Assembly: GCA_903913885.1 (NCBI GenBank)
Contig: CAIWMX010000128.1
Span: forward strand, 48,097-112,096
From: an uncultured Bacteroidales bacterium
Lineage (GTDB): Bacteria; Bacteroidota; Bacteroidia; Bacteroidales; FEN-979
Direction of reading: 5' to 3'
Length of the DNA stretch: 64,000 nt
Of this stretch, positions 7,711-54,180 are shown piece after piece. The notes below the pieces were generated by a model, which saw nothing but the letters and a program-made list of their open reading frames with translations, made no database searches and was not told the DNA's origin. Position 1 is the first letter of the stretch; each line of letters begins with the position of its first letter. The translations under genes and the position numbers were made by a program.

Positions 7711-8871
7711 TTACTTCTCGCGCAGGAGCGTTACTGAGCCTTTAAAAACTTCATTCCCGTACTGGCCTACGCAATGCAGGATATAGAAATAAGTCCCGTC
7801 GGCAAGGTTGCCCCCGTCCCAGTCCTCGCTTTTGTAATCTTTTTTGTCAAAGACCTTTTTTCCCCACCGGTCAAAAACCATAAACTCATTGCTTAAATAG
7901 GCTATACGGAAATCGTCGCTGGGAGTTCCGTCTTTTAACCTTACCTTGAACGTGTCGTTGTAGCCATCGCCATTGGGGGTAATCAGATCGGTAATAGTAA
8001 GATCGGCCACCTTCACAGTCAGTTTATGCGTGATGGTCGTATCACACCCGTTCAGGTCGGTGAAGGTGAGACTGTCGATAAATTCGCCGGTTCGCTTATA
8101 GGTATGGAAAGCGGGGTTCAGGTTGGGTATCCGGGTGCTGTCGCCAAAATTCCATGTCCAGTTGGTAATATATTTCTTCAAAGAATCCGGGAAGGTCACC
8201 TGGACCTTCGGGTTTGTAAGGTAAACCGTGTCGCGCGGCAAAATGTCGAAATCAATCTTCGGGGATATCAGCGCCCTGACGATGTAACTTGTGTCGAGCG
8301 AGCAGCCAAGCGAATCAGTTACATTAAGCGGGTATTCACCACGGCAGAGACCGAAAACGATCGTATCCTGCGAAAAACCGCCATGCCAGTCATAAACATA
8401 AGGAGGATAGATTTTCGACGGGGTTCCGCCTGAAACCAGTGCCTTGAACTGGCCTTTGCACTCTTTCGCGCAACCAAGGGCATTATAACGGTACAGGGTG
8501 TCCAGTTTCAACCTGGGATGCATCCGCAAATGCGCATCGTTGCTGGTATAACTCCCCCCAGCCACTATAGCGACGCAATGATATAGACCCGGGGAGCCCG
8601 ACTTTACGTGTTTAATGGAATATACTGAAGAGGTTGCACCGCTAATGGGAATAAAGTTCTGCTGCCACGTGTATCCAACAGTATTACTGCCGGCGCCGGT
8701 AACAACTGCAGTGAATACAATACTGTCATTGTAACATACAATGGTATCGGCAGGTTTCACGGTCACTATCACCTGCCCCATGGCGGTAATGGCTGAAAGA
8801 AAAGAAAGCAAAAAGAGGAAATGTTTCATCTGGTGTTGCAAAACAGCAGCAAAAATAAGAATTTCTTTCAA
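7711..8871 (-). CDS. Secreted protein with gliding-motility-type (T9SS type B) C-terminal sorting domain
   Basis: PKD-like region plus 'ITDLITPNGDGYNDTFKV...FMVFDRWGKKVFDKKDYKSEDWDGGNLADGTYFYILHC'. Confidence 0.88.
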   Translation of the reverse strand: MKEILIFAAVLQHQMKHFLFLLSFLSAITAMGQVIVTVKPADTIVCYNDSIVFTAVVTGAGSNTVGYTWQQNFIPISGATSSVYSIKHVKSGSPGLYHCVAIVAGGSYTSNDAHLRMHPRLKLDTLYRYNALGCAKECKGQFKALVSGGTPSKIYPPYVYDWHGGFSQDTIVFGLCRGEYPLNVTDSLGCSLDTSYIVRALISPKIDFDILPRDTVYLTNPKVQVTFPDSLKKYITNWTWNFGDSTRIPNLNPAFHTYKRTGEFIDSLTFTDLNGCDTTITHKLTVKVADLTITDLITPNGDGYNDTFKVRLKDGTPSDDFRIAYLSNEFMVFDRWGKKVFDKKDYKSEDWDGGNLADGTYFYILHCVGQYGNEVFKGSVTLLREK

Positions 8872-8902
8872 TCAAACGCTGAAAGCAGGGCATTTAGTAT
8901 GA

Positions 8903-9265
8903 TCAGTACTGATTGTTGGAGATCATGATCAGCGTGCAGGCATGAACAACCTCAATTCCAGCGTCAGTTAACATCGCGGCGAATTCAGGAGATTCAGTAC
9001 CCGGGTTGAAAATCACCCTTTTGGGCATCAGACCCAGTATATAATCGTAATAAGCTGGCAGGTTCTTCGGGCCGATGTAGAGGGTGACGGTGTGAATATC
9101 GTTGAATTTGGGAAAAGGCTTCTCAATTCTGACCCCGTTGATCTCGCCTTCACGCAAGCCGACAGCCACAACCGGAACATGGCTGAACTTGAGCTTCCTC
9201 ACAGCCATATAAGCAAACCGCTCAGGATTCGTGCTTGCACCCAGTACCAGGGTCTTCTTCTTCAT
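8903..9265 (-). CDS. CoA-binding domain protein (YccU-like)
   Basis: 120 aa; 'KKTLVLGASTNPERFAYMAVRKL...PKRVIFNPGTESPEF'. Confidence 0.82.
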   Translation of the reverse strand: MKKKTLVLGASTNPERFAYMAVRKLKFSHVPVVAVGLREGEINGVRIEKPFPKFNDIHTVTLYIGPKNLPAYYDYILGLMPKRVIFNPGTESPEFAAMLTDAGIEVVHACTLIMISNNQY

Positions 9266-9277
9266 GTATGAGTTTAT

Positions 9278-9979
9278 TTATTTACCTGCTGCTTCCACCT
9301 TTACCAGCCTGCCGTTGAGGTAGGTCTCCTTTTTGGCAATAGCTCCCTTGTCATTGTAAAATAGCCATGTGCCTGCCTGGTGGCCCGAAACGTACTGGCC
9401 GCTCATCATCACCTGGCCCGATATAAAAAAGGTTTTCAGCGCGCCATGCTTTTCTCCGGCCTGGTATCCGCCCTTTAATTTCAGCTTACCTTCGGTGTAA
9501 TACTGTTCCCATGGCCCGTCGGGTATGCCATTTTTGTATGTGCGCTGCTCAGACAACCCGCCTTCGGGATAGTACACCTTCGACACCCCTTCTGCCAGTC
9601 CGTTTTTATAATTTTCTTCAGAAACCAGGGTCTCGGCCGTTTCGCTGAAAAATTGCCAGGTACTGTCCTTTTTCTCGTTGAGGTACCTGCCAGCGGCCAT
9701 TTTCCGGCCATTGGGGAAATAGGAGGTTGTCATCGCCAGTTTCCCCCGGTTTGTCACAACGGATAAGGTTTTCAGCTTTCCGTCGGGGTAATAATAATGA
9801 AAAATCCCGGCAGGGATGCCGTCTTTAAAGTGACCGTCGTATACGACATGCCCGGCCGAATCGGCCTTGCGCCAGAATCCCTGTTTGCGTCCCTGGCTGT
9901 CTTTCATATTTACCGTATCCTGGCCGGCGGCATAACAGGAAAAAATTGTGAATAGGACGGCTGCGAATATCCTGAACAT
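9278..9979 (-). CDS. MORN-repeat (YwqK-like) exported protein
   Basis: Repeated 'G.....YY.DGKL....Y..G...G.W..Y' units; N-terminal signal peptide. Confidence 0.82.
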   Translation of the reverse strand: MFRIFAAVLFTIFSCYAAGQDTVNMKDSQGRKQGFWRKADSAGHVVYDGHFKDGIPAGIFHYYYPDGKLKTLSVVTNRGKLAMTTSYFPNGRKMAAGRYLNEKKDSTWQFFSETAETLVSEENYKNGLAEGVSKVYYPEGGLSEQRTYKNGIPDGPWEQYYTEGKLKLKGGYQAGEKHGALKTFFISGQVMMSGQYVSGHQAGTWLFYNDKGAIAKKETYLNGRLVKVEAAGK

Positions 9980-10023
9980 AAACTTTTTAAAATTACTTTT
10001 GCAAAGTTATAAGATAAAAACAA

Positions 10024-10644
10024 TTGCAAACCTACCCTTCAAAACTTCTTGAACTGGCTGTGAACGAATTGGCCAAACTGCCTGGCATCGGTCGTAAAAC
10101 CGCGTTGCGGATGGCGTTGCATTTACTTAAACGCAATCTTGCCGATGTAGAGGCGCTGGGAACTTCGGTTATCAAAATGCGCAGCGAGATCATTTATTGC
10201 ACTGAATGCCGGAACATTTCCGACCAGGAATTGTGCGCCATCTGCGCCAATCCCAGGCGCGACCGGTCTGTTATCTGTGTGGTTGAAGATATCCGCGATG
10301 TGATGGCCATCGAAAACACGGGTCAATACAGCGGGGTGTACCATGTGCTGGGAGGGATCATCTCCCCGATGAACGGGATCGGCCCCAATGAACTTCATAT
10401 TGATACGCTGATCAACCGGCTGCCCGGCGGGGTTAAGGAGATCATTCTGGCCCTGCCAACAACCATAGAAGGCGACACCACCAATTTTTATCTTTTCAGA
10501 AAGTTCGCTGGTTTTAACCTGGTGCTGACAACCATTGCCCGTGGAATCTCCATCGGCGACGAACTGGAGCATACCGATGAAGTCACGCTGGGCAGGTCGA
10601 TCCTCAACCGGACGCCTTACGAGTCGGTGATAAAAAACAAATAG
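10024..10644 (+). CDS. recR: Recombination mediator protein RecR
   Basis: '[20 protein letters not shown]', zinc finger '[22 protein letters not shown]', Toprim '[28 protein letters not shown]'. TTG start in the given ORF. Confidence 0.95.
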
Positions 10645-10649
10645 CCCTG

Positions 10650-10877
10650 TTAGAAAAGTTCAAGCTGGTTCAGGGCGACCGGAGGCAGACTGGTTGTTTT
10701 TAGCCCGGCATAATTATCAAGCATCGGGCGGATTGCTTTTTTTATAAGCTTGGTGGGGGTTGTCCTGCGCGACCTGCAAAAATTAACCAGCGACTTTTTC
10801 TGCCTGGCGGTAACCTTGAAGGTAATGGTCTTAAATTTTACCGGCTTTTTTGCCTTTTTGGCTTTTTTTCGTGCCAT
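10650..10877 (-). CDS. Small lysine/arginine-rich protein, possibly DNA-binding (RHH-like)
   Basis: 75 aa 'MARKKAKKAKKPVKFKTITFKVTARQKKSLVNFCRSRRTTPTKLIKKAIRPMLDNYAGL...' directly downstream of glmM; start re-assigned inside a longer ORF. Confidence 0.6.
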   Translation of the reverse strand: MARKKAKKAKKPVKFKTITFKVTARQKKSLVNFCRSRRTTPTKLIKKAIRPMLDNYAGLKTTSLPPVALNQLELF

Positions 10878-10881
10878 GCAG

Positions 10882-12276
10882 TCAGGGTTCGTTAACAATT
10901 TCATTGAAGTCGCTGATGATCTTTCCGGCAAGGTTCTCCGCCTTTTCCAACCTATCGCTTTCCGCGTAGATCCTAACAATGGGCTCGGTGTTTGACCGCC
11001 GCAGGTGAACCCACTCATTTTCAAAATGGATCTTGATGCCGTCGATGGTGGTGATAGGTTGTGAACTGTATTTCCCGACGATGATCTGCAGGATTTTCTC
11101 AATATCCATCTCCGGGGAGAATTCTATCTTATTTTTCGAAATGAAATAATCGGGATATTTGCCACGCAGGTCGGAACATTTTTTCCCCGACTTCGCCAGC
11201 CATGTAAGGAACAGGGCAATCCCCACGAGTGCGTCGCGCCCGTAATGCAAATCAGGATAGATAACACCGCCATTCCCCTCGCCGCCGATAACGGCATTCT
11301 GCAGTTTCATCATCTCCACCACGTTCACCTCTCCTACTGCGGATGGATAATAGGTTCCTCCTGCCTGTTCGGTCACCACTTTGAGAGCCAGGGTAGAAGA
11401 AAGGTTGGAAACCGTGTTTCCTTTTTTATGATGAAGGATATAATCCGCGACGGCAACCAGGGTATATTCTTCACCGAAAGGCTCCCCCATTTCGGTGATA
11501 ATGGCCAGCCGGTCAACATCGGGATCCACAACAAAGCCAAGATCGGCTTTATTTTTAACCACTGCTTCGCAGATATCGGCCAGGTGCTCGGGCAGCGGTT
11601 CCGGGTTATGCGGAAAATGGCCGGTAGGTTCGCAGTACAAAAGATCGGTATGTGCAACATTCAGGGCTTTCAACAGCTGAGGGATGACGATACCCCCGGT
11701 ACTGTTCACCGCATCGATCACCACACGGAAATTTGCATTCCTGATGACTTCAACATCGACAAGCGGCAAGGCGAGAACTTTTTCAATATGCCTGCTGATC
11801 CAGGTATCATCGGTTCGGTAACTTCCGAGGTCATACACGGTGGCAAAGTTGAGATCTGTGTCCCCGGTTAAGGCAAGCACCCTTTCGCCATCGGCGGCAG
11901 AAAGAAATTCACCACGGTGGTTCAACAGTTTCAGCGCGTTCCATTGGGCAGGGTTGTGACTTGCCGTAAGGATGATACCTCCCTGGGCGCAGACGCCGGC
12001 GACGGCAATTTCAACCGTGGGTGTCGTGGTTAACCCGATATCCAGCACATCCACACCCATTCCCATCAGGGTGCCGGTCACCAGGCTGTTCACCATGGGG
12101 CCAGAAATTCGTGCGTCACGCCCTACGACGACCGTGAGCTTTTCCCCCGGATGCGACTCCTGCAGGAACGTAGTATAGGCAGCGGTAAACTTTACAATAT
12201 CAACAGGGCTCAATCCCTCGCCGGGTTTCCCTCCGATGGTGCCCCTGATGCCCGATATGGATTTGATTAATGTCAT
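10882..12276 (-). CDS. glmM: Phosphoglucosamine mutase / phosphohexomutase
   Basis: 464 aa; 'GIILTASHNPAQWNALKLLN', 'DPDVDRLAIITE', 'GEGNGGVIYPDLHYGRDALVGIAL', 'RRSNTEPIVRIYAES'. Confidence 0.92.
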   Translation of the reverse strand: MTLIKSISGIRGTIGGKPGEGLSPVDIVKFTAAYTTFLQESHPGEKLTVVVGRDARISGPMVNSLVTGTLMGMGVDVLDIGLTTTPTVEIAVAGVCAQGGIILTASHNPAQWNALKLLNHRGEFLSAADGERVLALTGDTDLNFATVYDLGSYRTDDTWISRHIEKVLALPLVDVEVIRNANFRVVIDAVNSTGGIVIPQLLKALNVAHTDLLYCEPTGHFPHNPEPLPEHLADICEAVVKNKADLGFVVDPDVDRLAIITEMGEPFGEEYTLVAVADYILHHKKGNTVSNLSSTLALKVVTEQAGGTYYPSAVGEVNVVEMMKLQNAVIGGEGNGGVIYPDLHYGRDALVGIALFLTWLAKSGKKCSDLRGKYPDYFISKNKIEFSPEMDIEKILQIIVGKYSSQPITTIDGIKIHFENEWVHLRRSNTEPIVRIYAESDRLEKAENLAGKIISDFNEIVNEP

Positions 12277-12432
12277 CTTGTTTTTCCCGCAAATGTAAAT
12301 GTTTTCCTATTTGCAGCCCTTTCTGTTGATAAAAAAATGAAATCCGGTCAAATTGACAAACCCTTACAACCCATTTTTTTCGTAATTTTGTAAAAATGTT
12401 GCCTGACTGCAATATACAACTGAAACTGCTGA

Positions 12433-13872
12433 ATGGAAGAGCCTTTTGAATCATATTTTGATCGTGAAACCCTTTCCCTGGTAGGGCGTTTTGAAATTAT
12501 GGTGCAGCAGAACCAGCACTTTTTCTTTGATGTCGACGAATTTGAAGAGATCATCGAGTACTATTTCTTCAAGAACGAACAGCGGAAAGCCTTCAAAACC
12601 ATCAACCTGGCCCTGGATCAACACCCCGGCTGCGTTTCTATCATGGTTAAACTTGCCCAGTACCAGGTTAACGCGAAAAAAGACCGCGAAGCCCTCCGCA
12701 TCCTGAAAGAAATCGATCATGCCACATCGGCCGACAGCGAAATCTTCCTTGCCAAGGGCAACCTTTACAGCCAGCTTGAAAAACCTGAAAAAGCCATCGA
12801 AGAGTATAAAAAGGCCGTCGATGGGGCCGATTTTGTTGATGATATCTATTCAAGCATTGCGTTTGAATATGAAAATCTCGGTAAATATGACCAGGCCATT
12901 GAATTTTTACTCAAAGCGCTTGAGATCAATCCCGAAAATGATGCCGCACTTTATGAATTTGCTTTTTGTTGTGAAGTTTCGCAGCAAACAGATCGCAGCA
13001 TAGCATACCTCCACAGTTTCCTCGACCAGCAGCCCTATTCGGTTTCGGCCTGGTTTAACCTCGGCATCGCATACAGCAACATCGATCTTTATGAAAAAGC
13101 CATCGATGCATACGATTATGTGCTGGCCATCGATGAAACGTTTTCGTCAGCCTATTTCAACAAGGCCAACTGCTACGCCAACATCGGCAACTTCGACAAG
13201 GCTGTTGAAACCTACCTGGAAACTTTTTATTACGAAGATCCGGAGCCTGTTACCTATTATTATATCGCCGAGTGCTATGAGAAACTGAAGAAATTTGATA
13301 TTTCCATCGAATATTACCAGAAGGCGGTGGCACTCGATCCGGAGTTTGCAGATGCATGGCTGGGTATCGGAATTTCTCACGATGAACTTGGCAGGCCCCA
13401 GTCTGCCCTCCCTTATGTCCTCAAGGCCATAAAGATCACCCCGACCATTCCTGAATACTGGTTTATCCTCGGCGATATCCAGATCAAGCTTTCCAGGATC
13501 GCCGATGGCATTGCTTCCTACCGGAAAGTCATTGAACTCGATCCTGAAGATACTGATATCTGGCTGGATCTCTCGGTAGTGTATGCCGATCAGCAGGATT
13601 TTGAAAAAAGCTGCGAGGTGCTCAACGACGGGCTCCAATACCATGAAACGAATGTCGATTTTTTCTTTGCCATGGCCTGGTACCTGTTCATGATGGGGAA
13701 GGTGCAGGAGGCTGCCGAAACCATGCTGAAAGCCCTTGACATGGATTATGAAGGTTATAAACGATTGTTCTCCACGTTCCCCGAAGCGAAAAATCATCCC
13801 CAGGTTGTTGAAATGATCGAAGGATATAAACAAACGCCAAATGACCCAAATCAATCTCCCATTCCTGCCTGA
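12433..13872 (+). CDS. Cytoplasmic TPR-repeat protein
   Basis: 479 aa, many TPR units; no signal peptide. Confidence 0.88.
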   Translation: MEEPFESYFDRETLSLVGRFEIMVQQNQHFFFDVDEFEEIIEYYFFKNEQRKAFKTINLALDQHPGCVSIMVKLAQYQVNAKKDREALRILKEIDHATSADSEIFLAKGNLYSQLEKPEKAIEEYKKAVDGADFVDDIYSSIAFEYENLGKYDQAIEFLLKALEINPENDAALYEFAFCCEVSQQTDRSIAYLHSFLDQQPYSVSAWFNLGIAYSNIDLYEKAIDAYDYVLAIDETFSSAYFNKANCYANIGNFDKAVETYLETFYYEDPEPVTYYYIAECYEKLKKFDISIEYYQKAVALDPEFADAWLGIGISHDELGRPQSALPYVLKAIKITPTIPEYWFILGDIQIKLSRIADGIASYRKVIELDPEDTDIWLDLSVVYADQQDFEKSCEVLNDGLQYHETNVDFFFAMAWYLFMMGKVQEAAETMLKALDMDYEGYKRLFSTFPEAKNHPQVVEMIEGYKQTPNDPNQSPIPA

Positions 13873-14629
13873 CCGTACCGTTAAACCCCGGCAAAGCGGT
13901 GTTGCCATGGTCATGGACAAGGGGCTGAGCCTGCGCGAAGCCGAAGATTTTGTTGAAACTGCCGGCCACCTGGCCGATTTCGTCAAACTTGGGTTTGGCA
14001 CCTCCGTAGCAGCCAATAAAGTCAAAGAAAAAGTCAGGGTATACAGGGATGCGAATATAAAAGTATACGTTGGCGGAACCCTCTTTGAAGCCTTCATCAT
14101 ACGCAACATGTATGACGACTACCTCAGGTATATCGATCAGCTGGGCCTTGATTCGGTAGAGGTTTCCGACGGTTCCATGCTGATGGACCACGATGTGAAA
14201 TGCGAATACATCCATAAACTTTCAAAAAACTATACCGTCCTGTCTGAAGTCGGTTCCAAGGAATCCGGCATCCTGATCGCACCTGGCCGATGGGTGGAGA
14301 TGATGCAAAAGGAACTTCAGGCCGGGTCATTCAAGGTGATCGGCGAAGCCCGCGAAAGTGGCAATGTCGGCATTTACCGTGCCTCCGGCAAAGCCCATGT
14401 CACCCTGATCAATAAGATCCTTGCAAAAGTCGATGGCGACAAACTGTTATGGGAAGCGCCGCTTAAGCCGCAACAGGTATGGTTCATCAAACATTTCGGG
14501 GCCAATGTGAACCTTGGAAATATTGCCCCTGCTGAACTTATCGCGCTTGAAACCCTTCGCCTTGGCCTGCGGGGTGACACCTTTTTCACATTCCTGCCTG
14601 AAGAGTTCAGGAAGTTTCAGCCCGAATAA
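13841..14629 (+). CDS. comA: Phosphosulfolactate synthase family (ComA-like)
   Basis: 'GLSLREAEDFVETAGHLADFVKLGFGTS', 'VYVGGTLFEAFIIRN', 'VEVSDGSMLMDHDVK', 'LWEAPLKPQQVWFIKHFGANVNLGNIAPAELIALETLRLGLRGDT'. Confidence 0.88.
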   Translation: MTQINLPFLPDRTVKPRQSGVAMVMDKGLSLREAEDFVETAGHLADFVKLGFGTSVAANKVKEKVRVYRDANIKVYVGGTLFEAFIIRNMYDDYLRYIDQLGLDSVEVSDGSMLMDHDVKCEYIHKLSKNYTVLSEVGSKESGILIAPGRWVEMMQKELQAGSFKVIGEARESGNVGIYRASGKAHVTLINKILAKVDGDKLLWEAPLKPQQVWFIKHFGANVNLGNIAPAELIALETLRLGLRGDTFFTFLPEEFRKFQPE

Positions 14630-14701
14630 CACGTTGAACCGGGCATTCCGGAGCGCGCACGAACAGCAGGAAAAACCAGGGTGATTTTTTGAACCGGTGA
14701 A

Positions 14702-15460
14702 ATGACAGGTGAAAAAACTGAGTATGGATTAATTGGATTCCCTTTGGACCATTCATGGTCGGCAAACTGGTTCAATGAAAAATTCATCAGGGAAGGTGAT
14801 CTGAATAAATCATATCACCTTTTTCAATTACAGGATATAAGCGAATTCCCTGGCCTTATTGCGTCGCATCCCGAACTCAGGGGGCTTAATGTCACGATCC
14901 CATACAAAGAAAAGGTCATTCCGTTCCTCGACGAACTCGACAGCACAGCCGGATCAATCGGCGCAGTGAACACCATCCTGATTGAACGTGCAGGTGGCAA
15001 AATCCACACCCGTGGCTTCAACACAGATGCACCTGGTTTTCTTCAATCCCTTTCCGGGCTGGACCTTCCCGGGCAGGCGCTCATCCTTGGCACCGGCGGC
15101 GCCTCCAAAGCCGTTGCGTGGGCACTGACGCGGCTGAACATCCGCTTTGCATGTGTTTCCAGGCAAAAGCGCGGTAAAGATATCTTATCTTACCAGGAAT
15201 TAACACCGGATATTATCTCAAGGTATCCGTTCATTGTCAATACAACTCCCGCAGGCATGTACCCGGAGGTTGACACGTGCCCATCCATCCCCTATCATCT
15301 GCTTACAGGCAACCATTTTTTATATGACCTCGTCTACAATCCCGGGGAAACCCTGTTTATAAAACAAGGAAAGTCCATGAATGCCATGACTATGAACGGC
15401 TTACAGATGTTATTCAACCAGGCGGAATTATCATGGAAAATCTTTCTCAGTAACGGTTAA
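14702..15460 (+). CDS. aroE: Shikimate dehydrogenase
   Basis: 'YGLIGFPLDHSWSANWFNEKF', 'GLNVTIPYKEKVIPFLDEL', 'GAVNTI', 'ALILGTGGASKAVAWAL'. Confidence 0.93.
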   Translation: MTGEKTEYGLIGFPLDHSWSANWFNEKFIREGDLNKSYHLFQLQDISEFPGLIASHPELRGLNVTIPYKEKVIPFLDELDSTAGSIGAVNTILIERAGGKIHTRGFNTDAPGFLQSLSGLDLPGQALILGTGGASKAVAWALTRLNIRFACVSRQKRGKDILSYQELTPDIISRYPFIVNTTPAGMYPEVDTCPSIPYHLLTGNHFLYDLVYNPGETLFIKQGKSMNAMTMNGLQMLFNQAELSWKIFLSNG

Positions 15461-15550
15461 CTTGATCTTTGTTGATATTTAGAAGCATTATCAATAAGTA
15501 CAGATTGCAAAATAAGTCCCATTTTTACTTACTTTTGTATCATATAAAAA

Positions 15551-16462
15551 ATGCATACTGCTGAATATCAAAGCATTTCAACATACAAAGCAATGTCTAA
15601 AACCACCCACATCATTTACCTTATTTTTTTGTCACTCATTGTTTTAACAGCATTAGTAACCATTGCCTGGATTGGATTTCCCTATTACAAACTGGGTGTT
15701 GAAGAGCGCCCGTTTCATCCATCCGATGCACTGCTGAAGCCCAGCGGCATCTGGGGCCATGGACTCGGAATCATTGGGTCGCTGCTGATGATGGTCGGTG
15801 TGGGGTTTTATATGGCCCGGAAAAGGTTCAGGATGTTATCCCGAACCGGCCTGCTGAAACACTGGCTTGAATTTCATATTTTTCTATGCTCACTGGGTCC
15901 CATCCTGGTACTTTATCATACTTCCTTCAAATTCGGAGGACTTGTAGCCATCAGTTTCTGGAGCATGGTAGCGGTATTCCTGAGCGGGATCATCGGGAGG
16001 TTCATATACATCCAGATACCCAGGACGATCGAAGGGCGGGAATTGAGTTTGAATGAAGTCAGAGAGCTTACCAGCAATATCGGTGAATCCATCCGCAGCC
16101 TGGTTTCGCTCGATGATGACAGCTACAACGTGATCATCGATTCAACAAAAAAAAGGGTTGGAATTTATGCGGAGAACTTTCTGGTACGATCTTACCGAAA
16201 ATACAGCGATGACAGGAAAACAATGCACAACGTCAGGCAGGTTCTCAAGCGCAACAACGTCACCCGGTCACAGCAAAAACAGGTGCTTGACCTTGTTCAA
16301 AGTGATATTTCACTTAACCGGAGAATTGAAAGGCTTGTGCTTATGCAGAATCTCTTCAAATACTGGCATGTCGCCCACCTGCCTTTTGCCATTGTGATGC
16401 TTATTATCATGATCATTCACGTTGGTGTAACGATCGTATTTGGTTACCGCTGGATATTTTAA
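15551..16462 (+). CDS. Cytochrome-b-like integral membrane protein
   Basis: Several hydrophobic helices with conserved-looking His (GHGLG, KHWLEFHIF, VLYHTSF, YWHVAHLPFAI, IIHVGV). Immediately upstream of Fe-S flavoprotein and multiheme cytochromes. Start could be at MSKTTHIIYL. Confidence 0.65.
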   Translation: MHTAEYQSISTYKAMSKTTHIIYLIFLSLIVLTALVTIAWIGFPYYKLGVEERPFHPSDALLKPSGIWGHGLGIIGSLLMMVGVGFYMARKRFRMLSRTGLLKHWLEFHIFLCSLGPILVLYHTSFKFGGLVAISFWSMVAVFLSGIIGRFIYIQIPRTIEGRELSLNEVRELTSNIGESIRSLVSLDDDSYNVIIDSTKKRVGIYAENFLVRSYRKYSDDRKTMHNVRQVLKRNNVTRSQQKQVLDLVQSDISLNRRIERLVLMQNLFKYWHVAHLPFAIVMLIIMIIHVGVTIVFGYRWIF

Positions 16463-16464
16463 CC

Positions 16465-17799
16465 ATGGAACTACTTATAGAAAAAATCGGCATTTACGCT
16501 GTTGCAATCCTGCTCTGCCTGATAGTCGTTATCATATACCTGCGCAAGCAGAAACGTGATTCGAAGAAGGTAGAAGAGAAGATCGTAAAGGCAAAACTTG
16601 AGGGGATGTATGAACCGGTATCCCTGCACCCGGTGGTGGACGAAGGGAGCTGCATCAGGACGGGAGCATGCATCGCCGCCTGCCCTGAAAAGGATATCCT
16701 GGGAATCAGGAATGGCAAAGCCACAACCATCAATGCTTCCCAATGCATCGGGCATGGCGCCTGTTTCCACGCCTGTCCAACAGAGGCCATCACCTTATGC
16801 ATCGGTACCGAAACCCGGGGTGTGGAGCTACCCCACATAAACGAAAATTTCGAGACCAACATCCCGGGAATATTCATTGCCGGGGAACTTGGCGGCATGG
16901 GGCTTATCAGGAACGCCGTGGAACAGGGCCGCCAGGCAGTGGAACATATTGTAAAATCGCTGAAGAAAACCCATGATGCCTCTTATGATCTGATTATTGT
17001 AGGCGCCGGACCGGCAGGAATATCTGCTTCTCTCACTGCTAAAAAAAACCAGCTGAATTTCCTGACAGTTGACCAGGATACCCTGGGCGGTGCAGTTTTC
17101 ACTTTTCCGAGGTCAAAAATCGTGATGACCTCGGCGATGGACCTTCCACTATACGGCAAGGTTAAGCTGTTTGAAACCAGCAAATCTGAATTGCTCGACT
17201 TATGGACAACTGTTTTGAAGAAGAACAGCATCACCATCCGCGAAAATTCAAAAGTTGAAGCAATTATTCCTGAAAATGGTCATTTCAGCGTTGAATTTCT
17301 GAACGGCGAGCAGATTACTGCAAAAACCGTTCTTCTCTCCATAGGCCGGCGGGGAACTCCCCGCAAACTTGGAATACCGGGTGAGACCCTTGAAAAGGTT
17401 GCATACCGCCTGCTGGAGCCTGAAGCTATCAGCGGCAGGGATATCATGGTCGTTGGCGGAGGCGATTCGGCCATTGAGTCAGCCCTGTTACTTGCCGGTC
17501 AAAACACAGTAACCCTGTCGTACCGCAACGATGTTTTCAACAGGATCAAACCAAAAAACAAAGAAAGGATCAATGAAGCCATGCTTTCAGAAAAAATCAG
17601 GGTCCTGTTCAACACCTCCCCCGCCAGGATCAGCAATGATTCTGTGATCCTGTCCACAACCGGGAAAGAAGGCGAACTGAAAATCAAAAATGACCTGGTC
17701 TATATTTTTGCCGGAGGCGAACTGCCCACGCAGTTTCTTCAAAAGATCGGTTTGCAGATAACAAAGAAATTTGGTGAAGCAGTCCTAAAACATAAATAA
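16465..17799 (+). CDS. Membrane-anchored oxidoreductase: ferredoxin-like domain fused to FAD/NAD(P)-binding (YpdA/thioredoxin-reductase-like) domain
   Basis: N-terminal TM helix, two ferredoxin-type motifs (CIRTGACIAACP, CIGHGACFHACP), FAD motif 'LIIVGAGPAGISASL', NAD(P) motif 'IMVVGGGDSAIESALLLA'. Confidence 0.88.
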   Translation: MELLIEKIGIYAVAILLCLIVVIIYLRKQKRDSKKVEEKIVKAKLEGMYEPVSLHPVVDEGSCIRTGACIAACPEKDILGIRNGKATTINASQCIGHGACFHACPTEAITLCIGTETRGVELPHINENFETNIPGIFIAGELGGMGLIRNAVEQGRQAVEHIVKSLKKTHDASYDLIIVGAGPAGISASLTAKKNQLNFLTVDQDTLGGAVFTFPRSKIVMTSAMDLPLYGKVKLFETSKSELLDLWTTVLKKNSITIRENSKVEAIIPENGHFSVEFLNGEQITAKTVLLSIGRRGTPRKLGIPGETLEKVAYRLLEPEAISGRDIMVVGGGDSAIESALLLAGQNTVTLSYRNDVFNRIKPKNKERINEAMLSEKIRVLFNTSPARISNDSVILSTTGKEGELKIKNDLVYIFAGGELPTQFLQKIGLQITKKFGEAVLKHK

Positions 17800-17810
17800 T
17801 GGTCATCCCA

Positions 17811-17873
17811 CGTCCTGCGTTCCACGTCCTGCGTCCTTCGTCCTTCGTCCCACGTCCTTCGTCCCTCGTCCAA
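17811..17873. repeat. Heptamer tandem array (CGTCCNN)x9
   Basis: Nine consecutive 7-bp units cgtcctg/cgttcca/cgtcctg/cgtcctt/cgtcctt/cgtccca/cgtcctt/cgtccct/cgtccaa. Confidence 0.95.
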
Positions 17874-17907
17874 CTATCTGCTTCTTCATGCTAAATACTT
17901 TATTTTC

Positions 17908-19524
17908 ATGAATACCCGAATAAATCGAATCTTGTCCCTGCTTGTCCTGGCCTTTTTTGCCGGGTTTCCGCTGTATGGGCAAATATCTCCCGGCGAACTG
18001 GCCAAGGTACACAGCCACCTGGAAGGAATGTCAAACTGTACTAAGTGCCATATCCTTGGAAAGAAAGTCTCCCATCAAAAATGCCTTGACTGTCATACCG
18101 AACTGAAAACACGGATTGAACAAAAGAAAGGGTATCATGCTTCCGATGAAACCAGGGGAAAAGAATGTGTTGCATGCCACAGCGACCATCATGGCGTGAA
18201 TTTCCAGATCATCCGGTTCACAAAGGAAAAATTCAATCATAATCTTACAGGATACACCCTTTCAGTGGTTCATGGGAAAAAAGCCTGTACCGACTGCCAC
18301 AAACCGGCAAACATCAAAGATGAAAAGATCAGGAAGAAAACATTTACCTACCTGGGTTTAAATTCGACGTGCCTGACCTGTCATGCCGATTATCACCAGC
18401 AAACGCTTCCGGCCAATTGTACTGATTGTCATGAATCGGAAGCCTTTAAGCCTGCTTCAAAATTCAGCCACACCAGGGCAAAATTTCAGCTGGTCGGAAA
18501 ACACCAGTCGGTTCCCTGTGTCGCCTGCCACAAAACCGGGATCAAAAACGGGCAGAAATTTCAGGAGTTTAAAGGGATCAAATACGACAACTGTCTCAGC
18601 TGCCATAAGGATGTTCACAATGGCAAGTTCGGGCTGAACTGCACTCAGTGCCATTCAGAGCAGTCTTTTAGCGTCATCCGCAGCGGACAGAGTTTTGATC
18701 ATGACAAGACCGATTACAAACTGGAAGGGAAACATCAGAAAGTCGCCTGCAATTCCTGTCATAAAACAAAACTGACCAATGCGTTAAAATTTAACCGCTG
18801 CACCGATTGTCACACCGACTATCATAAGAACCAGTTCGCAAAACAGGGAGTGTTGCCCGATTGTGCCCATTGTCATACGGTGAACGGATTTTCAAACTTT
18901 ACATTCACCATCGAACAGCATAATGAAGGCCCTTTCCCCTTAAAAGGCGCTCACCTGGCCATTCCCTGTTTTACCTGTCATATAAAAGGCAACACGAAAA
19001 ATGACACTGTATGGAGTTTCAGGGAGATTGGGAAACGATGCATCGATTGCCACCAAAACATTCATCAGTCGATCATCAGTGAAAAATACTACCCGGGAGG
19101 CAGCTGCGAAAACTGCCATACTGAAGCCAGGTGGAATTCGGTCACTTTTGACCATAATAAAACAACTTTCGCGCTTTCAGGGGCGCATGCAGCAAAAACC
19201 TGCCGCGATTGTCATTTCAAAAAAGGAAACGACGGCGTTGCCGTCCAGAAATTCAACGGACTTCCGGGCCAATGTGTTGGCTGCCATAACGACATCCACG
19301 CAAGGCAGTTCGAAAACAACGGATCAACCGATTGCAACAGGTGTCATGAGCAGGGGTCATTCAAACCTGCTTCGAAATTTGACCACGCTAAAACGCTGTT
19401 TCCCCTTGACGGGAAACACAGGGATGTGCCTTGCGGCAAATGCCACAAGACCATACAGGATAAGGGAATTGCTTTTGTTCTTTACAAAATAAAGGATTTC
19501 AAATGCGAAAATTGTCATCATTAA
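17908..19524 (+). CDS. Multiheme cytochrome c (20 CxxCH motifs)
   Basis: 538 aa with signal peptide; I counted 20 CxxCH; repeated 'FDH..T.F.L.G.H....C..CH' modules. Confidence 0.95.
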   Translation: MNTRINRILSLLVLAFFAGFPLYGQISPGELAKVHSHLEGMSNCTKCHILGKKVSHQKCLDCHTELKTRIEQKKGYHASDETRGKECVACHSDHHGVNFQIIRFTKEKFNHNLTGYTLSVVHGKKACTDCHKPANIKDEKIRKKTFTYLGLNSTCLTCHADYHQQTLPANCTDCHESEAFKPASKFSHTRAKFQLVGKHQSVPCVACHKTGIKNGQKFQEFKGIKYDNCLSCHKDVHNGKFGLNCTQCHSEQSFSVIRSGQSFDHDKTDYKLEGKHQKVACNSCHKTKLTNALKFNRCTDCHTDYHKNQFAKQGVLPDCAHCHTVNGFSNFTFTIEQHNEGPFPLKGAHLAIPCFTCHIKGNTKNDTVWSFREIGKRCIDCHQNIHQSIISEKYYPGGSCENCHTEARWNSVTFDHNKTTFALSGAHAAKTCRDCHFKKGNDGVAVQKFNGLPGQCVGCHNDIHARQFENNGSTDCNRCHEQGSFKPASKFDHAKTLFPLDGKHRDVPCGKCHKTIQDKGIAFVLYKIKDFKCENCHH

Positions 19525-21611
19525 TTCTGGCAACAGTGCTCACAATGAGACTGTTCGGCCAATCATCACCTCACGGTGAGGGATTTACCATGAAATGTCT
19601 TGACTGCCATAGTACAACAGGGTGGAAAATCGACACAAAAACTTTGTCATTCAATCATAACGGAACCTCTTTTCCCCTTACCGGACAACACCAGGCTGTC
19701 GATTGCAGGCTGTGCCACACTTCCCTCGCCTTTTCAAAAGCAGGAAAGGAGTGTATTGCCTGTCACACCGATATGCACAACCAAACAGTTGGTGCCGACT
19801 GCGGAAGATGCCATACCCCGAATTCCTGGGTGGTGAACAACATTACCCAGATACACCAGCGAAGCCGGTTTCCGCTCGTAGGCGCTCATGTAGCGGCCGA
19901 CTGCTTTTCGTGCCATAAAAATGCATCGGCAAATCTCCTGTTGTTCGGCCCATTGGGCATTGAATGCGTTGATTGCCACAAGGACAAATATGACGCAACT
20001 ACGAAACCGAAACATATCCTGCCTGATTTCCCGACCAATTGCATCGAATGTCATTCCATGAGCGCTTTTTCGTGGGCAGGTGCCCGGTTCAACCATTCGG
20101 GCATTTCAGCGCCCTGTGTTCAATGCCATCAGGCAAACTACAATGCAACCGCAAATCCAAATCACAATGCCATCGGCTTTTCCACCAACTGTAATGACTG
20201 TCACACTTTCGACCCGGGATGGAAACCAGCCCAGTACAGGGAGCACGATGCCAAATCCTTTCCGATCTATTCAGGCAGGCACAATGGCGTATGGAATACC
20301 TGCAGCCAGTGCCACGCCAACCCGGCCTCCTATCTTCAATATACTTGTATCGATTGCCACGAACACAGTCAATCTGAAATGAGCAGCAAGCATAACGGTA
20401 TAAACGGATACGCGTGGAACAGTCCTGCATGCTTTGCCTGTCACCCAACCGGGTCCAAAGAAGGGACCTTTAACCATGCTACTTCGGGTTTCCCGCTTAC
20501 CGGGGCCCATACGGCCACCGAGTGCAACAAATGCCATGCAAACGGTTACGCCGGCACATCCCCCTTGTGTTACAGCTGTCATACGGCAAATTTCAATCTA
20601 TCAACAAATCCGAACCACAGTACACTGAACATTCCTCACGAATGCGGCACCTGCCACACAACACTCCCGGGCTGGAAACCGGCAACATTCCCGATCCATG
20701 ACAATTACTATGTTTTAGCTGGTGCCCATCTTCCGATCGCAAATGACTGCGCAACCTGTCACAAGGGAAATTACACCAACACCCCAAAATTATGTTTTGG
20801 TTGCCATGCTGATAAATACAACCAGTCGACCAACCCGAACCATACCACCTCCAATTTCCCGACAACCTGTGAAACATGCCATTCACAAGCTGCCTGGACT
20901 CCTTCAACATTCAACCATGCCAATGTGTACCCGCTTACTGGAGCACATGCAACCATCGCCTCAAATTGTTTTTCATGCCACCAGGGGAATTATATAACCA
21001 CTCCCAACACCTGCGAAGGCTGTCATACTCCAAACTATAACGCGACAACCAATCCTGCCCATTCGGCAATCGGCATCCCGGCGACCTGCGTCACCTGCCA
21101 TACTACCAACCCCAACTGGAAACCGGCCACCTTTCCAATCCACAGCAACTATTACGTTCTTGCAGGGGCGCATGTCAGTCTGGATTGCAGCACCTGCCAT
21201 AACGGTACATACAACAACACGACCCCGACAATCTGTGTTGGATGCCACCAGGCCAACTACAACGGAACCACCAACCCGCCTCATGCAACTTCGCAGTTCC
21301 CGACAACCTGCCTCGACTGCCATACGCAATCATCCTGGACTCCTGCAAACTGGAACCACGACGGGTTGTATTTCCCGATCTATTCGGGCAAGCATAACGG
21401 CAAATGGAATACCTGCGCTGATTGCCATACAAATGCTTCAAATTATGCTGTCTTTACCTGTACAACCTCGTGCCATCCCCAGGCAACCATGAATAATAAA
21501 CACCAGGGAGTTAGCGGTTACAGTTATAACAGCGCTGCCTGTTACAATTGCCATCCGCACGGCTCAGCCGGGAAAATGATGAACAGAATCATTATCAAGG
21601 ACAATGACTAA
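19503..21611 (+). CDS. Multiheme cytochrome c (26 CxxCH plus one CxxxCH)
   Basis: 702 aa with signal peptide; I counted 26 CxxCH and one CTTSCH; start overlaps upstream gene by 22 bp. Confidence 0.95.
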   Translation: MRKLSSLILATVLTMRLFGQSSPHGEGFTMKCLDCHSTTGWKIDTKTLSFNHNGTSFPLTGQHQAVDCRLCHTSLAFSKAGKECIACHTDMHNQTVGADCGRCHTPNSWVVNNITQIHQRSRFPLVGAHVAADCFSCHKNASANLLLFGPLGIECVDCHKDKYDATTKPKHILPDFPTNCIECHSMSAFSWAGARFNHSGISAPCVQCHQANYNATANPNHNAIGFSTNCNDCHTFDPGWKPAQYREHDAKSFPIYSGRHNGVWNTCSQCHANPASYLQYTCIDCHEHSQSEMSSKHNGINGYAWNSPACFACHPTGSKEGTFNHATSGFPLTGAHTATECNKCHANGYAGTSPLCYSCHTANFNLSTNPNHSTLNIPHECGTCHTTLPGWKPATFPIHDNYYVLAGAHLPIANDCATCHKGNYTNTPKLCFGCHADKYNQSTNPNHTTSNFPTTCETCHSQAAWTPSTFNHANVYPLTGAHATIASNCFSCHQGNYITTPNTCEGCHTPNYNATTNPAHSAIGIPATCVTCHTTNPNWKPATFPIHSNYYVLAGAHVSLDCSTCHNGTYNNTTPTICVGCHQANYNGTTNPPHATSQFPTTCLDCHTQSSWTPANWNHDGLYFPIYSGKHNGKWNTCADCHTNASNYAVFTCTTSCHPQATMNNKHQGVSGYSYNSAACYNCHPHGSAGKMMNRIIIKDND

Positions 21612-23256
21612 ATCTGCCGAAATGAGATACATACTCTGTTTCATGATGTCCGTGATCCCCGGTTTTATCGTGCTGGGGCAGAATCCCCGCGAAATAAAAG
21701 AAGGGAAAGTCTCATACATAACGACACAAAATGTTTATGTAAAATTTCAATCGACTGAAAATATTCAATCGGGCGATACCTTGTACGTCAGGAAGGACGG
21801 TCACCTCCTACCTTCTTTAATCGTAAAGGAAATCTCATCCATTTCATGCGTTTGTATCCCTGTTTCAGGGGAGAAATTATCAGTGGGGGACCAGGTGCTT
21901 GCCCGGCAAAAAGGACTGAGTCCTGAAAATCCCCAGGTTCCTGCTGAAGTTAAATCACAGGTGGTTGCAGCAAAAACCGATACGGCTGCCATAAAAAAAA
22001 AACAGCCGGTGAAACTGAAACAAAAGATTACCGGTAATTTCTCAGTTGCATCCTACCTGAACTTTTCAAATGTTGCTGCCAATTCTCAGAGGATGAATTA
22101 TACTTTCGCGATGGTTGCCCAGAATATTGGCAATTCAAAATTATCGGCTGATGTTTATATTACCTTCGCACACCAGCTAAATGCATGGAATGCCATAAAA
22201 AGCAACATCTTTAATGGACTGAAGATTTACAGTCTTGCACTTAATTATGATTTTAACAGTCACAACACAATCTGGGTCGGAAGAAAAATCAACCCAAGGA
22301 TTTCAAATGCAGGTGCTATCGACGGCTTGCAATATGAACTAAGAACAGGCACCTTTACGTTTGGCCTCATCGGAGGGACACGGCCCGATTACAGAGATTA
22401 CAGTTTCAACACAAACCTGGTGCAGGTCGGCGCCTATGTGGGGCATGATCTGGCTAAGAAAGGCGGCACCATGCAAACTACACTGGCTTTTATCGAACAG
22501 ACGAACAACGGGCAAACCGACCGGAGGTTCGCCTATCTGCAATATACAAACTCGCTGTTGCGGAACCTGTTCTTTTTCGGATCGGCAGAGGTGGACCTGT
22601 ATAAAAAAACGATGAACCCGCTTGATACGGCAGTCAGCAGGGACACCACCTATAAAAAGGACAATTCGCCCCACCTTTCAAACATATATCTTTCGCTCAG
22701 GTACCGGCCTTTCAGGCAGTTATCGCTGTCGTTATCCTACAGCAACAGGCAGAATGTGATTTATTACGAAACCTACAAATCACTGGTAGAAAGGCTGTTG
22801 GAAGCATCAACCGTACAGGGATATACCTTGCAGGTCAGCTACCAGCCGGCTAAATTGCTCTCCGTTGGGATCAATGCCGGATATCGCGACAGCAAATCCG
22901 ACCCCAGGCCATCAAAAAACCTGTATTGTTATATTACCGGGTCGAGGATTCCTGGCATCATGGTGACGGCAACCATTTCAGCTACCTTCCTCGAAACGGG
23001 TTATATGTCGGGAAAGATATACAGTGCCGGCATTTCGCGCGATCTAGTTCCGGGAAAACTTTACGGAGGGCTTGACTATCGCTATGTGATCTATAAGTTC
23101 TATAACGGGGAAGCGATGCCGGCACAGCAAATGGGCGAGGTTAATATTACCTGGCGGATTATGAAAAAGCTGTCGTGCGGATTCTATTACGAAGGTACTT
23201 TTGAGAAAACCTCAATGTTCAACCGGGTTTATATCAACCTTACCCAACGGTTCTGA
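21604..23256 (+). CDS. Outer-membrane beta-barrel protein, candidate porin of a porin-cytochrome conduit
   Basis: 550 aa; signal peptide, N-terminal small beta domain ('KEGKVSYITTQNVYVKFQSTENIQSGDTLYV..'), Lys-rich linker, then alternating amphipathic strands ending in 'YINLTQRF'; overlaps cytochrome gene by 8 bp. Confidence 0.78.
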   Translation: MTKSAEMRYILCFMMSVIPGFIVLGQNPREIKEGKVSYITTQNVYVKFQSTENIQSGDTLYVRKDGHLLPSLIVKEISSISCVCIPVSGEKLSVGDQVLARQKGLSPENPQVPAEVKSQVVAAKTDTAAIKKKQPVKLKQKITGNFSVASYLNFSNVAANSQRMNYTFAMVAQNIGNSKLSADVYITFAHQLNAWNAIKSNIFNGLKIYSLALNYDFNSHNTIWVGRKINPRISNAGAIDGLQYELRTGTFTFGLIGGTRPDYRDYSFNTNLVQVGAYVGHDLAKKGGTMQTTLAFIEQTNNGQTDRRFAYLQYTNSLLRNLFFFGSAEVDLYKKTMNPLDTAVSRDTTYKKDNSPHLSNIYLSLRYRPFRQLSLSLSYSNRQNVIYYETYKSLVERLLEASTVQGYTLQVSYQPAKLLSVGINAGYRDSKSDPRPSKNLYCYITGSRIPGIMVTATISATFLETGYMSGKIYSAGISRDLVPGKLYGGLDYRYVIYKFYNGEAMPAQQMGEVNITWRIMKKLSCGFYYEGTFEKTSMFNRVYINLTQRF

Positions 23257-23326
23257 ACCCTGTTCCCGTTGCAACCAACAAGCTTTACTGAGGCTCAGAC
23301 AACAATAAATCAGCCATTTAAATGGT

Positions 23327-23358
23327 TTTGGGCAGGTCATTGATTTTCTCTATCTTTG
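23327..23358 (+). promoter_or_regulatory. Bacteroidota-type promoter upstream of OB-fold-like gene
   Basis: TTTG (23327-23330), 20 bp spacer, TATCTTTG (23351-23358); matches TTTG-N19-21-TAnnTTTG. Confidence 0.6.
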
Positions 23359-23401
23359 CGTTCTGAAATCAAGTTTCAATAAATTAAAACTTCCATCTGA
23401 T

Positions 23402-24127
23402 ATGAACAGGACCAAGTTAATCGTCACCATCGTATTTCTCCTTATGGGTATTGTTTTTATCGTGACCACCTGCTACCGGTCCGGTGAAAAAAAGCAACAA
23501 AAAGCCCTCCCCCCGGGCATGCATGGTGTGGTCATTGACGATGTTATTCAAACTTCCAACTACACCTACCTGCAGGTTGAGGAGAACAACAGCAAATTCT
23601 GGATCGCAGTTGTAAAAACCGGCAGCAAGGCAGGCGATTCGGTTTATTACACCATCTCTATGGAAATGAAGAATTTTGTCAGCAAGGAATTGAACCGCAC
23701 CTTCCCCAGTGTATTTTTTGTTCAGGATCCAAGCAGCAAAATGCCGGGAAGCGAGCCTGCCCCAAAACTTACACCCCAGAAAGTTGATGTTGTGCAAAAA
23801 TCAGATATTTCTGTAAAACCCGCGCAAGGTGGTATTTCCATTGCAGATCTTTATAAAAGCCCGGCCGGTTTTAATGGAAAAACCGTGATCATCCGGGGCG
23901 TTGTAACGAAATTCAACTCCCAGATCATGAAGAAAAACTGGATCCATATCCAGGACGGCACCAGCAACGCGGGAAAATTCGACCTTACCATCACCTCCCT
24001 CGACAGTCTGGCTGTGGGCAGTACTGCAACCTTTAAGGGAATTATCACGCTGAACAAGGATTTTGGTTACGGGTATACCTACGACGTAATTATGGAAGAG
24101 GCCAAAGTCTCAGATATAACTAAGTAG
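23402..24127 (+). CDS. Exported/membrane-anchored OB-fold-like protein
   Basis: 241 aa; N-terminal hydrophobic segment, two related beta domains; 'GKTVIIRGVVTKFNSQIMKKNWIHIQDGT....LTITS....VGSTATFKGIITLNKDFGYGYTYDVIMEEA'. Confidence 0.65.
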   Translation: MNRTKLIVTIVFLLMGIVFIVTTCYRSGEKKQQKALPPGMHGVVIDDVIQTSNYTYLQVEENNSKFWIAVVKTGSKAGDSVYYTISMEMKNFVSKELNRTFPSVFFVQDPSSKMPGSEPAPKLTPQKVDVVQKSDISVKPAQGGISIADLYKSPAGFNGKTVIIRGVVTKFNSQIMKKNWIHIQDGTSNAGKFDLTITSLDSLAVGSTATFKGIITLNKDFGYGYTYDVIMEEAKVSDITK

Positions 24128-54096: not shown

Positions 54097-54180
54097 CGTC
54101 CCACGTCCCTCGTCCCTCGTCCCTCGTCCCTCGTCCTTCGTCCCTCGTCCTTCGTCCCTCGTCCCACGTCCCTCGTCCTA
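54097..54180. repeat. Heptamer tandem array (CGTCCNN)x12
   Basis: Twelve 7-bp units; last unit supplies the arcC stop codon (minus strand). Same family as 17811-17873. Confidence 0.95.

What the first reader, a model, noticed from the sequence alone, without database searches (positions are those of the whole stretch)
15551..24127. Candidate trans-envelope electron conduit: cyt b-like / Fe-S flavoprotein / 20-heme / 27-heme / beta-barrel / OB-fold-like cluster
Seen directly: six consecutive same-strand genes. cyt b-like and flavoprotein are 2 nt apart, the two cytochromes overlap by 22 bp, and cytochrome 2 and the barrel overlap by 8 bp. Known: porin-cytochrome conduits (MtrAB-type, Geobacter PCC) pair a periplasmic multiheme cytochrome with an OM barrel. 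Here two very heme-rich exported cytochromes (47 heme-binding motifs in total) are coupled to an inner-membrane module and a barrel. Inference: electrons pass between an NAD(P)H or quinone pool and the outside through these proteins. The particular combination, with a YpdA-like Fe-S flavoprotein, is not one I recognise as a characterised system.
Basis: partly seen in the sequence, partly recalled or inferred. Interest (0 to 1): 0.78.

Follow-up and report, generated by a model that had tools for sequence, protein, structure and literature searches.

The report
PCC3-type electron conduit with Fe-S flavoprotein
This gene cluster very probably builds an electrical wire through the whole cell envelope of uncultured Bacteroidota bacteria; the outer part resembles a proposed conduit known from iron-oxidising Proteobacteria (PCC3), but here it comes with its own NAD(P)H-type enzyme at the inner end, and it is far more widespread than published reports suggest.

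Summary
In detail: six intact same-strand genes, 20 CXXCH in cytochrome 1 and 26 CXXCH plus one CX3CH in cytochrome 2, with the stated gaps and overlaps. It is a conserved unit. In 200 Bacteroidota-phylum genomes, the cyt b-like protein, flavoprotein, 20-heme cytochrome and barrel occur in the same 19 genomes; a 20th holds only remnants of the locus. Of 52 named-collection loci with enough downstream sequence, 51 have the same five-gene order. Emticicia oligotrophica DSM 17448, a cultured bacterium, carries all six genes on a plasmid. Architecture and residue tests match the proposed "PCC3" conduit (He et al. 2017): an inner-membrane protein with two HX13H motifs plus SGXXG, a ~20-heme and a larger repeat-rich cytochrome, and a barrel. 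PCC3 was reported from Proteobacteria. New here are a dedicated 3-Cys+His ferredoxin/FAD/NAD(P) protein in every intact locus, a fixed 20/23-heme cytochrome, and a partner growing in triheme steps (1+3n, 10-61 motifs). The flavoprotein lacks the dithiol of thioredoxin reductases. The sixth (OB/GW-like) gene is not core. Best model: NAD(P)H -> FAD -> Fe-S -> two hemes b -> 20-heme bridge -> barrel and long cytochrome -> outside. Direction, substrate and quinone involvement are unproven.

The parts
15593..16462 (+). inner-membrane diheme cyt b-like protein (PCC3-type IMP); annotated start 15551, likely true start 15593
   Evidence: two HX13H (H109/H123, H276/H290) and SGXXG in 25/25 homologues; five TM helices from AF2 model and hydropathy; weak DUF4405 / Ni_hydr_CYTB matches in relatives; start from orthologues
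16465..17799 (+). N-terminally membrane-anchored ferredoxin-FAD-NAD(P) oxidoreductase
   Evidence: Fer4_10 4e-10, Pyr_redox_3 1e-40; TM 8-26 followed by K/R-rich stretch; 3 Cys + T/S and 3 Cys + invariant His cluster motifs, no CXXC outside
17908..19524 (+). 20-heme exported cytochrome c, constant across relatives (20 or 23 hemes)
   Evidence: 20 CXXCH; 76 of 85 relatives have 20, six have 23
19503..21611 (+). 27-motif exported cytochrome c built of triheme units; relatives 10-61 motifs
   Evidence: 26 CXXCH + 1 CX3CH; counts are 1 modulo 3 in 78 of 83 relatives; spacing ~32/16/25
21604..23256 (+). outer-membrane beta-barrel with small N-terminal beta domain, about 22 strands, C-terminal Phe
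   Evidence: AF2 pLDDT 78.7; Foldseek E 8e-11 to OM barrels; profile found only in cluster-bearing genomes
23402..24127 (+). accessory OB/GW-like putative lipoprotein, not core
   Evidence: Pfam GW 0.004 here, 1.4e-6 in Emticicia orthologue; own promoter-like element; present without the cluster in other genomes
15530..15537 (+). TANNTTTG (Bacteroidota -7 element) upstream of the operon
   Evidence: same relative position in most genus orthologues

Best explanation
A PCC3-type porin-cytochrome conduit in an uncultured member of the Bacteroidales, with a dedicated NAD(P)H input module. Shown: the genes form one conserved, co-inherited unit with the motif content of PCC3 plus a ferredoxin-FAD-NAD(P) protein. 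Inferred: the flavoprotein sits on the cytoplasmic face of the inner membrane, oxidises NAD(P)H with FAD and passes single electrons through two ferredoxin-type clusters to the cyt b-like protein. That protein's two hemes b move them across the inner membrane. The constant 20-heme cytochrome bridges the periplasm. The variable triheme-repeat cytochrome, held by the barrel, carries them out and away from the surface to an extracellular acceptor (mineral, humic, electrode or partner cell). Outward flow is more likely because electrons leaving the negative cytoplasmic side are favoured by the membrane potential and the donor is low-potential.
For: Same 19 of 200 genomes for flavoprotein (E<=1e-90), cyt 1, cyt b and barrel; remnants in a 20th. 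80/80 named-collection loci keep the flavoprotein with cyt b; 51/52 with enough sequence keep all five in order. Two gene orders (flavoprotein second or last) both keep it. Distances between families correlate at r 0.77-0.95. PCC3 inner-membrane motifs in 25/25. Distant cyt b relatives on Proteobacteria and Spirosoma plasmids are also next to a NAD(P)H/FAD/2Fe-2S reductase and a multiheme cytochrome, the reductase being of an unrelated flavoprotein family; a third flavoprotein context is seen in L051. Invariant Arg354/Arg360 after the GGGDSA motif fit NAD(P)H binding. aa per heme 26-27, as in PCC3.
Against: No experiment in any Bacteroidota member was found. PCC3 itself has no proven function (PMC12442390). 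The cyt b model has no solved-structure match. He et al. propose that the PCC3 inner-membrane protein exchanges electrons with quinones; its heme ligands cannot tell the two apart. Extracellular exposure of cyt 2 is not tested. Direct sequence homology to proteobacterial PCC3 proteins could not be tested because no reference sequence was reachable.
Confidence: 0.6

Rival explanations
1. Same conduit, but coupled to the quinone pool: the cyt b protein is a menaquinol oxidase/reductase (as proposed for PCC3) and the flavoprotein is a side branch or a regulator.
For: He et al. model PCC3/PCC4 inner-membrane proteins as quinone-active, related in motif to FRD and bc1 cytb. Proteobacterial PCC3 clusters are described without a flavoprotein.
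Against: In Bacteroidota every intact locus has the flavoprotein, in either of two gene positions; distant cyt b relatives also sit beside NAD(P)H flavoproteins.
Confidence: 0.25
2. Electron uptake: the conduit oxidises extracellular Fe(II) or another donor and feeds electrons inwards, eventually to NAD(P)+ or an oxidase.
For: PCC3 was found in Fe(II) oxidisers and its inner-membrane gene rises with iron-oxidising ability in Sideroxydans CL21.
Against: Reduction of NAD(P)+ from such donors against the membrane potential is strongly uphill (established bioenergetics); most hosts here are Bacteroidota MAGs, many from lakes and other redox-stratified settings judging by record title, although Emticicia is from warm spring water.
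Confidence: 0.15
3. A conduit for detoxification or periplasmic electron storage (metal or oxidant reduction outside the cytoplasm), not respiration.
For: The distant flavoprotein-cyt b-multiheme modules mostly lie among copper-resistance genes; large heme counts could act as a capacitor (suggested in PMC10734462).
Against: No metal-resistance genes seen next to the window cluster; a dedicated OM barrel is unnecessary for storage.
Confidence: 0.1

Closest known systems
PCC3 (He et al. 2017, PMC5566968; Gallionellaceae survey PMC10734462)
   Same: porin + ~20-heme periplasmic cytochrome + longer repeat-rich cytochrome + ~300-aa inner-membrane protein with five TM, two HX13H and SGXXG; aa/heme about 26
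   Different: Bacteroidota hosts; dedicated ferredoxin-FAD-NAD(P) protein; often a TM-anchored TPR protein; periplasmic count 20/23 (2 mod 3) rather than 21/24/27; barrel modelled with ~22 strands rather than up to 42 predicted
PCC4 (He et al. 2017)
   Same: inner-membrane HX13H protein with neighbouring Fe-S redox proteins
   Different: PCC4 has 4-, 5- and 10-heme periplasmic cytochromes and no long extracellular one
MtrCAB / MtoAB / PioAB and Geobacter OmbB-OmaB-OmcB
   Same: porin plus multiheme cytochrome principle
   Different: no MtrB_PioB match for the barrel; no decaheme MtrA; inner-membrane partner is not CymA/Cbc
NOX/FRE flavocytochromes
   Same: NAD(P)H-FAD-diheme-b logic and HX13H spacing
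   Different: separate flavoprotein of thioredoxin-reductase type with ferredoxin clusters; electrons go to heme wires
YpdA/Bdr and TrxR-type ferredoxin-NADP reductases
   Same: fold of the FAD/NAD(P) part (best PDB hits 7a76, 7a7b)
   Different: no catalytic Cys, no CXXC, added ferredoxin domain and TM anchor
Uncharacterised cluster of MAG Bacteroidetes_1 on an anode (PMC8258643)
   Same: several multiheme cytochromes + barrel, hits only in Bacteroidetes/Ignavibacteriae
   Different: described as seven genes, six of them multiheme cytochromes; identity with this system not tested

Membership tests
PCC3 | outer-membrane beta-barrel encoded with the cytochromes | tested here: met
   AF2 model and Foldseek; gene order
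PCC3 | periplasmic MHC with about 21 hemes | tested here: met
   20 hemes; 76/85 relatives have 20, six 23; periplasmic location itself inferred
PCC3 | second, longer MHC (median 34 hemes) rich in repeats | tested here: met
   27 here, 10-61 in relatives, triheme units
PCC3 | second MHC is extracellular | not testable with these tools
   needs protease or antibody accessibility
PCC3 | ~300-aa IMP, five TM, two HX13H on TM3/TM5, SGXXG on TM4 | tested here: met
   25/25 homologues; both WX3HX13H forms in 21/25
PCC3 | aa-per-heme ratio 22-39 | tested here: met
   538/20 = 26.9; 702/27 = 26.0
PCC3 | sequence homology to S. lithotrophicus / Leptothrix PCC3 proteins | not tested
   no reference sequence reachable; only distant IMP relatives on plasmids found
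MtrAB/MtoAB | barrel of the MtrB_PioB family | tested here: not met
   no match in 23 barrels at E<=1
MtrAB/MtoAB | decaheme MtrA/DmsE-type periplasmic cytochrome | tested here: not met
   20 hemes; TIGR03508 46 bits against cut-off 192
Geobacter OmbB-OmaB-OmcB | OmbB-type porin | tested here: inconclusive
   no NCBIfam match, but no OmbB model or sequence was compared
YpdA/Bdr | family score above cut-off and catalytic Cys in GxGPCG | tested here: not met
   153.8 against 339.9 bits; residue is A/S/G in 22/22 (role of the Cys from general knowledge)
thioredoxin reductase | redox-active CXXC | tested here: not met
   none outside the Fe-S domain in 22/22

The most novel reading that the evidence does not exclude
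A single operon encodes a quinone-independent NAD(P)H-to-outside wire: an envelope-spanning NAD(P)H oxidase in which a ferredoxin-like flavoprotein with 3-Cys+His clusters feeds a diheme cyt b directly. The outer wire's length is set by the number of triheme units gained or lost by tandem duplication.
Probability: 0.4. Interest if true: 0.75.

Novelty: new variant of a known kind. Interest (0 to 1): 0.56.

Why it matters
PCC3 has been discussed as a proteobacterial iron-oxidation candidate whose inner-membrane partner is unknown. That gives a testable answer to where the electrons come from, suggests many Bacteroidota in redox-stratified waters can export electrons, and points to a cultured host (Emticicia oligotrophica, plasmid-borne) for experiments. 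The 1+3n heme series is a natural experiment on how wire length evolves.

Tried and rejected
MtrB/PioB or Ext-type barrel: no family match. Thioredoxin or bacillithiol disulfide reductase function for the flavoprotein: catalytic cysteines absent. Sixth gene as a core part: rejected on distribution. Solved-structure relatives of cyt b and barrel by sequence: only chance matches. Foldseek with the cyt b model: nothing significant, so its fold class rests on motifs and on weak DUF4405/Ni_hydr_CYTB hits. Papers joining PCC3 with Bacteroid-: three hits, all irrelevant by title.

Full report
OBSERVATION. The six ORFs exist as described. Motif counts are 20 CXXCH and 26 CXXCH + 1 CX3CH, against 0.25 and 0.33 in shuffles of the same proteins. 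The window lies in a 5.16-Mb, 99%-complete draft genome. Its closest named-collection relatives are uncultured Bacteroidales/Bacteroidetes MAGs, many from Lac Pavin and other lakes by record title. Start-site correction: orthologues begin at MSK..., equal to 15593 here, and a TANNTTTG element stands at a constant distance.

CONSERVATION. In 200 genomes spread over the phylum, strong cyt b homologues (E<=1e-50) occur in 20. Cyt 1 occurs in 19 of these 20, the barrel profile in the same 20 and the flavoprotein at E<=1e-90 in the same 19; none of the four occurs at these thresholds in the other 180. The 20th genome has a cyt b with stops and a barrel remnant. In the window's genus 15 of 20 genomes match, and every fetched locus long enough has all six genes in order. 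Distances of the four families correlate across 68 loci (r 0.77-0.95); shared ancestry explains part of this.

VARIANTS. In a second arrangement (families f12, f19, f30, f38) the flavoprotein is last, after the barrel, and an extra 9-10-heme cytochrome often precedes the barrel. A TM-anchored TPR protein often sits after cyt b; a role in heme attachment like NrfG/CcmI is a guess. Emticicia oligotrophica DSM 17448 carries the six genes on plasmid pEMTOL02 directly after a CcsA/ResB cytochrome-maturation gene, with 23 and 40 hemes.

CYTOCHROMES. Cyt 1 has 20 hemes in 76 of 85 relatives and 23 in six. Cyt 2 has 10 to 61 motifs, and the count is 1 modulo 3 in 78 of 83 (related sequences, so not independent draws). 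Spacing explains this: a constant head (36-16-16-34-19-25), then repeats of about 32-16-25, then a tail (37-15-28). In one relative the repeats are near-identical tandem copies. The window protein has 27, apparently because one unit lost a heme (spacing 25-25 in place of 25-32-16). Reading: a constant-length periplasmic bridge and an unconstrained outer wire. This fits the published idea that the PCC3 periplasmic cytochrome spans the periplasm and the other extends outside (PMC10734462); location is not shown here.

INNER MEMBRANE. The cyt b-like protein has H109/H123 and H276/H290, each HX13H, and SGXXG, in all 25 relatives: the motif set He et al. report for PCC3/PCC4 inner-membrane proteins, which they compare with ferric reductases, NOX and bc1 cytb. 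The AF2 model (pLDDT 80, pTM 0.68) has no solved-structure match. About 110 residues between TM4 and TM5 form a helical domain, cytoplasmic by the positive-inside rule, where a flavoprotein could dock (inference). The flavoprotein has a TM anchor, a two-cluster ferredoxin domain with motifs CxxTxxCxxxCP (Ser in relatives, Cys in the second arrangement) and CxxHxxCxxxCP (His invariant), and a TrxR-type FAD/NAD(P) part without CXXC. Distant cyt b relatives (about 21-26% identity) on plasmids of Alteromonas, Methylophaga, Variovorax, Acetobacter, Legionella, Qipengyuania and Spirosoma lie next to a different flavoprotein type (annotated 2Fe-2S proteins; FAD_binding_6/NAD_binding_1/Fer2 in the two scanned) and usually a cytochrome (seven hemes in the five plasmids counted). 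Two unrelated NAD(P)H flavoproteins beside one cyt b family is the strongest sign that NAD(P)H is the donor.

OUTER MEMBRANE. The barrel model has about 22 strands and a C-terminal Phe; Foldseek finds generic OM barrels (ushers, AlgE). No MtrB_PioB match. Whether a 22-strand pore holds the heme wire is untested.

VERDICT. A real, conserved conduit of PCC3 architecture, not reported from this phylum as far as the held literature shows, with a flavoprotein that proteobacterial PCC3 descriptions lack. Function and direction remain inferences.

Noticed in passing
window 17804-17871 and 54097-54178: CGTCCNN heptamer tandem arrays in spacers; 90 exact or one-mismatch hits genome-wide, none for the reversed control.
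   Followed up: partly
L051 (G055:C32), 8013-16368: PCC4-like cluster without a barrel seen: Fer4_11/cNMP protein, HX13H cyt b relative, 10-heme cytochrome, FHA proteins, Pyr_redox+Fer2 protein, PP2C.
   Followed up: partly
L165, L166, L167, L168, L169, L170, L171: Plasmid-borne 2Fe-2S/FAD/NAD reductase - cyt b - multiheme (7 hemes where counted) modules, mostly among copper-resistance genes.
   Followed up: partly
L045 (G142:C56) 13014-14136: Degenerate remnant of the cluster: cyt b with stops and a barrel C-terminus only.
   Followed up: no
L035 7483-9418: Near-identical 210-bp (three-heme) DNA repeats inside a 58-heme cytochrome gene, a sign of recent expansion.
   Followed up: partly
L161 6031-13725: Other multiheme genes of the same genome: a 6-heme lipoprotein-like gene, then a 7-heme gene followed by cyt b and NrfD-like genes.
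   Followed up: no
window 12433-15460: TPR gene, ComA-like phosphosulfolactate synthase and shikimate dehydrogenase precede the operon in most genus members with enough sequence.
   Followed up: no
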